Shown here one piece after another: positions 1,732 to 53,355 of a stretch of DNA of 64,000 bases. Location of the stretch: NCBI GenBank assembly GCA_008012115.1, contig SSEB01000005.1:37862-101861 (forward strand), written 5' to 3'. The notes below the pieces were generated by a model, which did no database searches, was not told the DNA's origin, and saw only the letters and a program-made list of their open reading frames with translations. Position 1 is the stretch's first letter. Each line of letters begins with the position of its first letter. The position numbers were made by a program, and so were the translations under genes. Source of the stretch: Nevskiaceae bacterium. GTDB lineage: Bacteria; Pseudomonadota; Gammaproteobacteria; Nevskiales; Nevskiaceae.

Positions 1732-1845
1732 GCCACCCGCTGTTGCCGTTTTCCCCAGGCAATTTGTTATTAATTAATATATGAATTATATTTCGATATA
1801 TATTTAATAACAATGTGGATGACCCTCGCCGCCAGAGCGGGTGGC
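1732..1845 (+). repeat. 114-bp AT-core palindromic element, copy 1
   Basis: Left end GCCACCCGCT at 1732-1741 and right end AGCGGGTGGC at 1836-1845 form a perfect 10-bp terminal inverted repeat. Two 22-bp arms (1742-1763, 1814-1835) enclose a 50-bp AT-rich core (1764-1813). The core begins TTGTTATTAA and ends TTAATAACAA, also an inverted repeat. The left arm holds a small hairpin (TTGCC...GGCAA). The copy lies between the transglutaminase and acyltransferase genes; its right end is 16 bp from the chosen acyltransferase start. Confidence 0.93.
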
Positions 1846-1861
1846 ATTGCGGGAGTGCGAA

Positions 1862-2449
1862 ATGGTGCCGTCGACACAGTTGCCGCAATGGGGCAACGCC
1901 TGCACGCAGGTGCTGGGACGCACCGTGCTGCGCGCCTTCGGCTGGCGCCTGGAGGTGCGCTTGCCGGACGTGCCCAAGCTCGTGGTGATCGCCGCGCCGC
2001 ATACCTCCAACTGGGATTTCGTGTTCGCGCTGGCGGCGATCCTGGCGCTGCGCGTGCGCGTGCACTGGTTCGGCAAGCACACGCTGTTCCGCTGGCCCTT
2101 CCGGCGCATCTTGACCGCGCTGGGCGGCATTGCCATCGACCGCAGCGCGGCCATCGGCGTGGTGCGACAGACCACGCAGCAGTTCGCCGCGCACGAGCGC
2201 CTGCTGATCGGCCTGGCACCGGAGGGCACCCGCTCGCTCGCGCCTCATTGGAAAAGCGGCTTCTACCAGATCGCGCTCGCCGCCGGCGTACCCATCGTGC
2301 CGGCCTATCTCGACTACCGCACGCGCACCATCGGCCTGGGGCCCACGCTTCATCCCAGCGGCGACTACGCCGCGGACCTCGAGACGCTGCAGTCGTTCTA
2401 CCGTGGCGTGACAGCGCGGCACCCGCAGAATTTTGCCGCCGAGGGCTAG
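1862..2449 (+). CDS. PlsC-like 1-acylglycerol-3-phosphate acyltransferase
   Basis: Small acyltransferase of the PlsC/LPLAT superfamily, expected to transfer an acyl group to a lysophospholipid or similar acceptor at the inner membrane. The HX4D catalytic motif reads HTSNWD (His47, Asp52), and the phosphate-binding motif APEGTRS starts near residue 119. At 195 aa it is the short form of the family, without extra domains. I chose the ATG at 1862, which has GGGAG about 7 bases upstream. A GTG at 1841 in the same frame would place the first codons inside repeat copy 1. No operon partner is visible. The exact acyl acceptor cannot be read from the sequence. Confidence 0.82.
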   Translation: MVPSTQLPQWGNACTQVLGRTVLRAFGWRLEVRLPDVPKLVVIAAPHTSNWDFVFALAAILALRVRVHWFGKHTLFRWPFRRILTALGGIAIDRSAAIGVVRQTTQQFAAHERLLIGLAPEGTRSLAPHWKSGFYQIALAAGVPIVPAYLDYRTRTIGLGPTLHPSGDYAADLETLQSFYRGVTARHPQNFAAEG

Positions 2450-2491
2450 CGCACGACCGGCCGCAGCGCGCGCCGCCGCTCCCTCGTGCGC

Positions 2492-2845
2492 TCAGTGCGC
2501 CGTTTGGGGGCGCACCCGCGACAGCAGCAGGCCACCGATCAGGAAGAACGGCAGCATGGTGACGGCGGCTCCGATCACCGTCATCAGCAGCTGGAAGCGC
2601 TTCTTGTAACCCTTGCGATCAGCGACGCCACCCAGCAGCGGCGCCAGCACCAGCACCATCACCACCAGACTGGCGATGGAGCCGCCTCAGCCCAGCTACC
2701 AGGTGCGCTCGGCGTCGGGCAGCGCGGCGGCCCAGTACTTGGCGAAAAAAATCGGAAAGAACCCGGCCAGCACCATGGTGGCAAAAGCCGAATCGGCCCA
2801 GTTGTACATCGCCCAGGCGAGCTGGCTGCGACGTTCGACGCGCAT
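2492..2845 (-). pseudogene. Decayed MFS transporter (UMF1-like) remnant
   Basis: The start codon lies 2 bp after the rimI stop, so this was once the third gene of the udg-rimI operon. The first ~50 codons encode a typical UMF1/Atg22-like MFS amino terminus (MYNWADSAFATMV, then PIFFAKYW). In the same frame come two nonsense codons, TAG and TGA, separated by two sense codons. They sit where family members have polar and Trp codons. The frame then continues through a recognisable MFS loop (GGVADRKGYKKRF) and one more membrane segment, and ends at TCA 2492 (minus-strand TGA). A full member has about 12 membrane segments and over 400 residues, so most of the middle is missing too. Two nonsense changes plus an internal deletion make this a dead gene. 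Confidence 0.8.
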
Positions 2846-2847
2846 CG

Positions 2848-52430: not shown

Positions 52431-52610
52431 ACGTCAGCGCAGACATCCATGTCGATAATTCACTCCCCTTCCAACCACCGGCCCGGCCATCCCTGGCCGG
52501 GCGCGCAGCAGGAGGGACTGCCATTCAAGGCAGTCCCTCTGATTCCGCTGCGCCCCTTCGTCGGCATCAAATTGATCGACCTGCGGGTCAACGCCGCCGG
52601 TCTCGCCTGA
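52431..52610 (+). repeat. Duplicated kdpB 3' end with two hairpins and an open in-frame tail
   Basis: 52554-52610 repeats kdpB's last 57 bases (52374-52430), nearly identical for the first ~29 and diverged after, exactly 180 bp apart and in the same frame, encoding PFVGIKLIDLRVNAAGLA and a stop. The frame is open from the kdpB stop to there; an ATG at 52449 would give 53 codons. Two strong stems lie between: GCCCGGCCA/TGGCCGGGC (52481-52502) and AGGGACTGCC/GGCAGTCCCT (52513-52538). Confidence 0.8.
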
Positions 52611-52620
52611 GGAGAATTCC

Positions 52621-53226
52621 ATGCTTTCGCATTTACGTCCCGCGCTGGTCCTTTTTGCGCTGCTGACCCTGCTCACCGGCCTCGCCTACCCGCTGGCGAT
52701 CACCGGTCTTGCCCAGGCCTTGTTTCCGAAGCAGGCCGGCGGCAGCCTGATCGAGCGCGATGGCAAGGTGATCGGCTCCGCGCTGATCGGCCAGAACTTC
52801 ACCGGCGCCGGCTATTTCCACGGCCGTCCTTCGGCGACCACCGATACCGATCCCAACGACGCCGGCAAGACCGTACCCGCGCCGTACAACGCGGCGAATT
52901 CCGCCGGCTCCAATCTTGCCCCGACCTCCAAGGCGCTGATCGACCGCGTCAAGGCCGACGCCGCTAAGTTGCAAGAGGAGAACACCGACGCACCGGTGCC
53001 GGTGGAACTGGTCACGACCTCCGCCAGCGGGCTCGATCCTGAGATTTCACCGGCGGCTGCGCGCTTCCAGATTCCGCGCATCGCCAAGGCGCGCGGGCTC
53101 GATGCGGCGAAATTGCAGGCCCTGATCGATGCCCACACGCAGGGCCGCTGGCTGGGCCTGATCGGCGAGCCCACGGTCAGCGTGCTGGCGCTCAATCTTG
53201 CGCTCGACGCCGCGGCATCGCCGTAG
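52621..53226 (+). CDS. kdpC: K+-transporting ATPase subunit KdpC
   Basis: 201 aa with one N-terminal membrane helix and a periplasmic domain. Family motifs GSALIGQNFTGAGYFHGRPS, YNAANSAGSNLAPTS and TTSASGLDPEISPAAA are present. GGAG lies 8 bases before the ATG. Last structural subunit; the gap to kdpD holds repeat copy 8. Confidence 0.95.
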   Translation: MLSHLRPALVLFALLTLLTGLAYPLAITGLAQALFPKQAGGSLIERDGKVIGSALIGQNFTGAGYFHGRPSATTDTDPNDAGKTVPAPYNAANSAGSNLAPTSKALIDRVKADAAKLQEENTDAPVPVELVTTSASGLDPEISPAAARFQIPRIAKARGLDAAKLQALIDAHTQGRWLGLIGEPTVSVLALNLALDAAASP

Positions 53227-53241
53227 AATGGCGCGACAGGC

Positions 53242-53355
53242 GCCACCCGCTCCGTGCCTGATCGCCGGAGAGATAGTTATAATTTATTTATCTATTTTAT
53301 TTTCGATAGATATTTTATCTCATCTTGTTGACGCCTGGACGCCATAGCGGGTGAG
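53242..53355 (+). repeat. 114-bp AT-core palindromic element, copy 8
   Basis: Ends GCCACCCGCT (53242-53251) and AGCGGGTGAG (53346-53355); core 53274-53323; arms 22 bp. It lies inside the kdp operon, 15 bp after kdpC and 8 bp before kdpD, so it must be transcribed if kdpABC and kdpDE share a message. Confidence 0.93.

What the first reader, a model, noticed from the sequence alone, without database searches (positions are those of the whole stretch)
1732..53355. A 114-bp intergenic element present eight times with fixed 10-22-50-22-10 geometry
Copies at 1732, 9948, 18206, 22733, 29241, 33586, 44125 and 53242 are each exactly 114 bp. Ends GCCACCCGCT and AGCGGGTG and the limits of an AT-rich core are conserved, while the two 22-bp arms share no sequence between copies. 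Not one copy has gained or lost a base between the conserved blocks. Exact spacing with free sequence suggests a protein complex contacting end and core on one helical face (32 bp, about three turns), not an ordinary decaying transposon. About one copy per 7 kb here would mean hundreds in a genome. I do not recognise it as ERIC, BOX, REP/BIME, Correia or attC.
Basis: seen in the sequence. Interest (0 to 1): 0.93.

Follow-up and report, generated by a model that had tools for sequence, protein, structure and literature searches.

The report
Evenly spaced chromosome-wrapping DNA element
This bacterium's genome carries at least 363 copies of a 114-base DNA element; in the quarter of the genome read here they sit between genes about every 8,000 bases, nearly always with exactly the same inner distances, and each copy is likely the anchor of a protein complex around which the DNA is predicted to be wrapped to organise the chromosome.

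Summary
The element is a two-fold symmetric 114-bp unit: 10-bp end, 24-bp arm, 46-bp AT-rich core, 24-bp arm, 10-bp end. The genome (kin of Stenotrophobium rhamnosiphilum, Nevskiaceae) holds 363 copies; the reversed-pattern control gives 0. In 801 kb read, 85 of 90 copies keep both ends at exactly 24 bp from the core, and 90 of 90 lie between genes. New here: (1) spacing is regular, about 8 kb (contig C1: CV 0.38 against 0.92 for random intergenic choice); three long gaps are lower in GC. (2) Outside the element the flanks oscillate AT/GC with about 10.5-bp period for about 60 bp on each side, AA/TT opposite GC, the signature of DNA wrapped on protein; S. rhamnosiphilum shows phasing too. (3) S. 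rhamnosiphilum has a diverged version (45-bp core), in the same gene gap in 6 of 7 comparable cases. (4) Arms have drifted while length, ends and core are kept, so copies are under selection; one copied pair and one clean 114-bp gain show that it can spread. Best explanation: dyad sites of a wrapped nucleoprotein complex that divides the chromosome into about 8-kb domains. The protein is unknown; no H-NS gene was found. Mechanism inferred, not shown.

The parts
1732..1845 (.). element copy 1 (10-24-46-24-10), between two + strand genes
9948..10061 (.). element copy 2, between diverging genes
18206..18319 (.). element copy 3, the most diverged ends (2 and 3 mismatches), core edges GTT..AAC kept
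   Evidence: counted as intergenic
22733..22846 (.). element copy 4, between two + strand genes
29241..29354 (.). element copy 5, between two + strand genes
33586..33699 (.). element copy 6, between two - strand genes, the right one gltP-like (33727-34968)
44125..44238 (.). element copy 7, 2 bp after the end of bcsG
53242..53355 (.). element copy 8, between kdpC and kdpD; the gap is 137 bp here and 23 bp in S. rhamnosiphilum, exactly 114 less
53182..53241 (.). left flank zone (about 60 bp) in which, averaged over copies, AT content oscillates with the helical repeat; shown for copy 8 as the example
   Evidence: average over 170 flanks, not this copy alone
53356..53415 (.). right flank zone of the same kind, reaching into the start of kdpD
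   Evidence: averages, not this copy alone
52621..53226 (+). kdpC (potassium ATPase subunit C), context
   Evidence: NCBIfam
53364..56084 (+). kdpD-like sensor kinase (best model KdpD, 786 bits, below its cut-off of 1123), context
   Evidence: NCBIfam

Best explanation
The 114-bp element is a two-fold symmetric intergenic site, found about every 8 kb in the quarter of the genome read, that likely anchors a protein complex around which more than 200 bp of DNA are predicted to be wrapped, and so would divide the chromosome into supercoil or loop domains of similar size. Shown directly: the symmetric ends and core, the exact inner distances, the regular spacing, the long gaps of lower GC without it, and the helically phased AT/GC pattern reaching about 60 bp beyond each end. 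Inferred: that a protein reads the ends and the core (end centre to core edge is about 31 bp, three turns, one face), that the phased DNA wraps on that complex, and that the wrapped nodes set domain size. Origin: the unit can be copied to new places, but nearly every copy read has kept ends, core and length while its arms drifted, which I take as selection.
For: Fixed geometry in 85 of 90 copies; half-element hits of 25 bits or more lie at the known sites in 175 of 175 cases. Strong columns 3-10, 35-38, 44-46 and 53. Left and right ends and arms vary independently (z -0.4 and 1.0), which speaks for double-stranded protein sites rather than one long hairpin. AT peaks about 5, 15, 26, 36, 47 and 59 bp beyond the ends; 0 of 500 phase-scrambled controls as strong for bp 1-30, 6-45 and 31-70; AA and TT nearly in phase, GC about half a turn away; similar phase in S. 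rhamnosiphilum, P 0.001; visible inside coding flanks, 56 flanks, P 0.0005. Spacing on C1: CV 0.384 against a null mean of 0.918 and null minimum of 0.520 in 20,000 draws of intergenic gaps; 6, 4, 6, 6, 5, 5 sites per 40 kb. 90 of 90 core midpoints outside called genes, no clear bias for gene direction. The three gaps over 20 kb are mostly of lower GC. Six of seven comparable S. rhamnosiphilum sites lie in the same gene gap.
Against: No binding protein is known and no function was measured. HU/IHF matches are three, as in most relatives. In the reverse test 7 of 10 gaps that hold the element in G000 have no AT core in S. rhamnosiphilum, so the sister species may live with far fewer sites. Phasing in coding flanks is carried by codon positions 1 and 2 (P 0.001), not by position 3 (P 0.41), which could mean insertion into already bendable DNA rather than later selection on flanks. 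In genus g8 there is no phasing 35-95 bp from the core (P 0.50). In 12 of 180 cases a called gene overlaps an element edge. One pair lies 1.39 kb apart. Regular spacing could also come from target immunity of a transposon. The inner hexamer does co-vary between halves (z 4.8), so a small hairpin is not excluded.
Confidence: 0.48

Rival explanations
1. A selfish miniature transposon with terminal inverted repeats, moved by an unseen transposase whose target immunity keeps copies kilobases apart.
For: Two copies on contig C3 share nearly identical arms with no shared DNA on the left and only about 10 bp on the right, so a whole unit was copied 1.39 kb away. The kdp gap is exactly 114 bp longer than in S. 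rhamnosiphilum, and the four other Nevskiales-type loci read (two Solimonas, one Stagnimonas, one Nevskiaceae MAG) show no AT core there, so this is a gain.
Against: Among the 85 standard copies arms are nearly unrelated (median identity 0.38, highest 0.71; 0.29 after shuffling letters) while ends, core and length are kept; neutral copies would lose all parts alike. No target-site duplication signal. No half-elements away from known sites that could bound a larger autonomous copy in 801 kb. The one fresh pair breaks the spacing rule, which speaks for later selection rather than immunity (one case only).
Confidence: 0.2
2. An array of strong DNA gyrase sites: gyrase itself, perhaps guided by the ends and core, wraps the phased DNA and pumps supercoils once per domain.
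For: The E. coli gyrase motif has a central part (-16 to 19) and two phased arms (-63 to -17 and 20 to 66), explained by wrapping on GyrA (PMC6379681, passages). Gyrases of three species show 10-11 bp periodic GC preference, described as within 120 bp of the cleavage sites (PMC12324340, passages); the phased zone here reaches about 116 bp from the dyad. The flanks show the same kind of phasing.
Against: The zone reaches further than the E. coli motif of PMC6379681; the strict 8-bp end and GTT/AAC core edges look like specific recognition, which gyrase is not known for (recalled). Gyrase is near-universal, while the element was found in no other of 57 family genomes.
Confidence: 0.2
3. Self-marking of the core chromosome, as uptake sequences do: the element labels own DNA for uptake, recombination or defence.
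For: Spread over the sampled chromosome, absent from three long gaps of mostly lower GC.
Against: End motifs are not enriched alone: GCCACCCGCT 104 in elements and 4 outside; CACCCGCT 168 in and 43 outside, against 52 and 99 for two scrambled octamers. An uptake tag would not need a rigid 114-bp dyad or phased flanks. Recently acquired DNA would lack any chromosomal repeat.
Confidence: 0.06
4. A transcription terminator or regulator site.
For: Core midpoint outside genes in 90 of 90 cases; 19% of element-gene distances are 10 bp or less.
Against: No clear bias for gene direction: 63 tandem, 13 convergent, 14 divergent of 90, against 517, 85, 83 of 685 neighbouring pairs. It splits kdpC from kdpD and a gene pair that is 58 bp apart in S. 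rhamnosiphilum (the 58 counted by eye). Ends and arms do not co-vary between left and right.
Confidence: 0.05

Closest known systems
REP/BIME elements of enterobacteria
   Same: Intergenic, palindromic, many copies; BIME-2 are preferred gyrase sites (PMC6379681, passages) and proposed as supercoil barriers (PMC6907758, passages).
   Different: REPs are 20-40 bp (PMC3733652, start of abstract in listing) and often arranged in composite BIMEs (PMC2817692, start of abstract in listing); this is a single 114-bp dyad with free arms, exact inner distances and even spacing.
Strong gyrase site of phage Mu and the E. coli gyrase motif
   Same: Helically phased AT/GC arms that favour wrapping (PMC6379681, passages).
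   Different: In the passages read, a degenerate motif without dyad ends and no regular array along a chromosome.
Miniature inverted-repeat transposons (MITEs)
   Same: Short inverted terminal repeats, discrete unit, copied at least once.
   Different: No target duplication signal, near-random arms with preserved length, regular spacing.
Chromosome-organising sites such as matS, parS, KOPS (recalled)
   Same: Short motif repeated on the chromosome and read by a dedicated protein.
   Different: Those are short motifs, clustered or oriented in parts of the chromosome (recalled); here 114 bp, symmetric and evenly spread where sampled.

Membership tests
REP/BIME | 20-40 bp palindromes, often in clustered arrays | tested here: not met
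   114-bp units; 3 of 83 spacings below 30 kb are under 3 kb, the smallest 1388 bp
REP/BIME | stem-loop with compensatory changes | tested here: inconclusive
   ends z -0.4 and arms z 1.0 show none; the inner hexamer 47-52 co-varies with its mirror, z 4.8
MITE | terminal inverted repeats | tested here: met
   GCCACCCGCT / AGCGGGTGGC
MITE | target-site duplication | tested here: not met
   no length 2-12 at offsets -2 to 2 with |z| above 2.5 over 85 copies; kdp gap exactly 114 longer
MITE | copies alike over their whole length | tested here: not met
   median arm identity 0.38 over 85 copies; one alike pair outside that set
MITE | autonomous relative with the same ends | tested here: inconclusive
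   no half-elements away from known sites in 801 kb, about a quarter of the genome
strong gyrase site | helically phased arms about 17-66 bp from a cleavage centre | tested here: inconclusive
   phasing present, clearest about 57-116 bp from the dyad
strong gyrase site | gyrase binding and cleavage | not testable with these tools
   needs Topo-Seq
H-NS site | H-NS protein in the genome | tested here: not met
   PF00816: 0 matches in G000 (94.8% complete), G001, G008, G019; 19 of 41 genomes have one
known RNA family | Rfam match | tested here: not met
   0 matches at gathering scores in the window
ERIC, BOX, Correia, attC | sequence match | not tested
   no repeat library was on hand; lengths and ends differ as recalled

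The most novel reading that the evidence does not exclude
A bacterial chromosome with built-in, evenly spaced wrapping stations: a lineage-specific DNA dyad and an undiscovered protein form nucleosome-like nodes every 8 kb that fix the size of supercoil domains, a mobile element turned into a chromosome ruler.
Probability: 0.4. Interest if true: 0.95.

Novelty: categorically new. Interest (0 to 1): 0.87.

Why it matters
Supercoil domain barriers in E. coli are described as commonly seen at random places, with identities still to be established (PMC6907758, passages). Here the DNA itself shows sites at regular distance, with a helical wrapping signature, in a genus with a named strain. That makes the identity of a domain barrier directly testable, and would give the first example known to me of a bacterial chromosome punctuated at near-constant intervals by one rigid nucleoprotein site.

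Tried and rejected
H-NS as the binder was considered because the core half TCGATAAAT resembles the recalled H-NS nucleation motif; made unlikely because PF00816 was not found in G000, G001 and the two genus-g8 genomes searched. Extra HU or IHF copies: three matches in G000, as in most relatives. One long hairpin: ends and arms show no left-right co-variation; the inner hexamer does, which I leave open (template switching or dimer symmetry). Plasmid records: a 201-bp query around copy 8 found no match.

Arm motif as a sign of age: left and right arms carry it independently (5 both, 35 one, 45 none of 85), which does not fit a simple age model. In one search the reversed-sequence control (108 positions) counts the elements' own reversed cores and overlapping offsets, so it is not a usable control and I dropped it.

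In the notebook I called the C3 pair at 65,965 and 67,352 a segmental duplication. Searches show that flanking DNA is not duplicated, so it is a copied element.

Results against or weaker: 12 of 32 S. rhamnosiphilum contexts had a hit in my part of G000; five of low identity I set aside as paralogues by judgement; of the seven left, five match on both sides, one (L069) on one side only, and one (L063) is not in the same gap. In one search, 7 of 10 G000 gaps lack the core in S. rhamnosiphilum and one is only AT-rich; one of the ten is the degenerate copy at C1:119,694. Contig C5 spacing has CV 1.41 because of a 67-kb gap. Phasing fades beyond 60 bp (P 0.032 for bp 61-120, though 0 of 500 for bp 101-200). 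In S. rhamnosiphilum the best period for 35-95 bp is 11.5, not 10.5, and 51-110 bp is not significant (P 0.12); in genus g8 there is phasing next to the core (11-34 bp, P 0.003) but none at 35-95 bp (P 0.50). Low GC is not a clean label: some low-GC windows outside the three long gaps have sites close by, and one window inside a gap is 0.684. At empty sites the gap without the element does not always equal the sister's gap: 23 and 23, 6 and 13, 70 and 58 bp (the last two counted by eye). In some searches a few relatives' genomes show one control match each. Paper searches that found no description of such an element in their listings; they cover open-access full texts only.

Full report
What is there. 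The eight copies are real. The unit is 114 bp with two-fold symmetry: GCCACCCGCT, 24 free bases, a 46-bp AT-rich core (consensus GTTATTAATTATTTATCGAATTT and its mirror image), 24 free bases, AGCGGGTGGC. In the genome that holds the window (G000, 3.25 Mb in 24 contigs) the fixed pattern CACCCGCT-N24-GTT-N40-AAC-N24-AGCGGGTG occurs 363 times with up to 3 mismatches, control 0. I read 801,458 bases of it, about a quarter. A profile of the core, built from 48 of these copies, found 90 cores; 85 have both ends at exactly 24 bp. Half-elements of 25 bits or more were not seen away from these sites: 175 of 175 hits lie on them. Rfam gives no match in the window and viral contigs no exact match.

Whose genome. 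The best named KdpD relative among the 80 loci kept is Stenotrophobium rhamnosiphilum GT1R17, 80% identical, family Nevskiaceae. The 'same genus' genome G001 is that strain or its twin: 1000 of 1000 bases identical. The 114-bp pattern is absent from 57 of 57 other family genomes at up to 3 mismatches. Eight of 60 relatives had one or two matches to the ends alone; the letters shown have no AT core, and the reversed control matches about as often.

Even spacing. On contig C1, 35 sites in 260 kb have a spacing CV of 0.384; 20,000 random draws of 35 from the 254 intergenic gaps give a mean of 0.918 and a minimum of 0.520. Six windows of 40 kb hold 6, 4, 6, 6, 5, 5 sites. Over all six stretches, 83 of 84 spacings are below 30 kb; these average 8.1 kb and 3 are under 3 kb, against 25.7 expected for a random process. 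The three gaps over 20 kb are mostly lower in GC, 0.55-0.65 in 5-kb windows apart from one of 0.684, against 0.65-0.70 in most of the rest. They may be acquired DNA; their genes were not read.

Place among genes. None of the 90 core midpoints lies inside a called gene; in 12 of 180 cases a called gene overlaps an element edge. Neighbours are tandem in 63, convergent in 13 and divergent in 14, close to the make-up of all 685 neighbouring pairs, 517, 85 and 83 (the gene finder was my own). The element sits inside an operon-like row, between kdpC and a kdpD-like gene.

Wrapping signature. Outside the element the mean AT content over 170 flanks swings between about 0.2 and 0.55 near the end, with peaks near 5, 15, 26, 36, 47 and 59 bp, best period 10.25-11; none of 500 phase-scrambled controls was as strong for bp 1-30, 6-45 and 31-70. 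AA and TT peak together, TA and AT weakly so, and GC peaks about half a turn away, the rotational code known from nucleosomal DNA (recalled) and in kind from gyrase-bound DNA. It persists in flanks that are coding (56 flanks, P 0.0005, carried by codon positions 1 and 2). S. rhamnosiphilum, with 56 flanks, shows a similar phase, 3.4 against 4.0 bp from the core edge, P 0.001 for 35-95 bp, best period 11.5. End centre to core edge is about 31 bp, and element plus flanks spans about 230 bp. I infer that this DNA lies on a protein surface.

History. S. rhamnosiphilum has a diverged version: 40 hits to a 45-bp core, some overlapping, control 0. Of 42 flanks of 21 sites, 3 carry CACCCGCA at one and the same offset and 6 carry CCCGCA anywhere; more look similar by eye. 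Of 32 contexts, 12 had a protein hit in my part of G000; seven were clear enough to compare, and in six the G000 element is in the same gap, five with both neighbours matched. In the other direction, of 10 G000 sites with both neighbours found, two have the core, one is AT-rich without a clear core, and seven have none. Genus g8 has 3-6 core hits per genome, control 0, without a clear end motif, several at what look like matching places in different species (by eye). At kdpC-kdpD the G000 gap is 137 bp, the S. rhamnosiphilum gap 23 bp, exactly 114 less, and four other loci read (two Solimonas, Stagnimonas, a Nevskiaceae MAG) show no AT core there, so this copy was gained. One pair on contig C3 shares nearly identical arms over the element but not the flanks: a unit was copied. 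Their cores differ at mirrored bases, in line with the left-right co-variation of hexamer 47-52 (z 4.8).

Why selection. Among 85 copies arms differ nearly at random (median identity 0.38, highest 0.71, shuffled 0.29), while ends, core edges and length are kept in nearly all. Copies old enough to have lost arm similarity would have lost ends, core and register too unless kept. The constraint on length with freedom in sequence is what a rigid nucleoprotein needs.

Mechanism. The most likely reading is a dedicated complex that contacts ends and core on one face and wraps more than 200 bp, repeated every 8 kb to set supercoil or loop domains. Shown: geometry, symmetry, phasing, spacing, kept positions at some sites. 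Inferred: protein, wrapping, domain function. H-NS is unlikely as the binder because no gene was found. Gyrase is the best known candidate (PMC6379681, PMC12324340, passages). Intrinsic curvature alone can pin supercoil loops (PMC6301789, abstract), so the phased flanks could help even without protein.

Known or new. REP/BIME, MITEs and gyrase sites each share one trait and fail or leave open others (see membership rows). ERIC, BOX, Correia and attC were not tested by sequence. I found no paper that describes such an element in the listings of nine searches of open-access texts.

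Noticed in passing
G000 contig C3, 65,965 and 67,352 (L080): Two elements 1.39 kb apart with nearly identical arms, unrelated left flanks and only about 10 bp of shared right flank; one has a 45-bp core, and core differences fall at mirrored positions.
   Followed up: partly
G000 contig C5, about 47-114 kb (L024-L027): A 67-kb stretch of mostly lower GC without a single element found, possibly an acquired island; its gene content was not read.
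   Followed up: partly
L161/L167, L162/L170, L156/L169, L160/L168/L173 (genus g8 genomes): AT-rich 45-bp cores framed mostly by GTT/GTG and AAC/CAC at what look by eye like matching loci of different species, without clear end motifs; the inner letters are scrambled while length is kept. Perhaps the ancestral form of the site.
   Followed up: partly
relatives G000-G052 (41 genomes): H-NS (PF00816) was not found in the genomes of genera g1 and g8 that were searched, which have the cores, nor in those of g3, g6 and g7, which showed none.
   Followed up: partly
element columns 47-52 and 63-68: The inner hexamers co-vary as an inverted repeat (z 4.8) while ends, arms and the other core parts tested do not; may reflect template-switch repair of a small palindrome or dimer symmetry.
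   Followed up: partly
element columns 18-32: About a quarter of arms carry a TTTcCCTgGGgAAa-like motif at fixed register, independently on the two sides.
   Followed up: partly
window 44486-48193, - strand: A 1235-codon open frame with only a weak NCBIfam match (pilus RbmA-like PamR, below cut-off); it may not be a gene.
   Followed up: no
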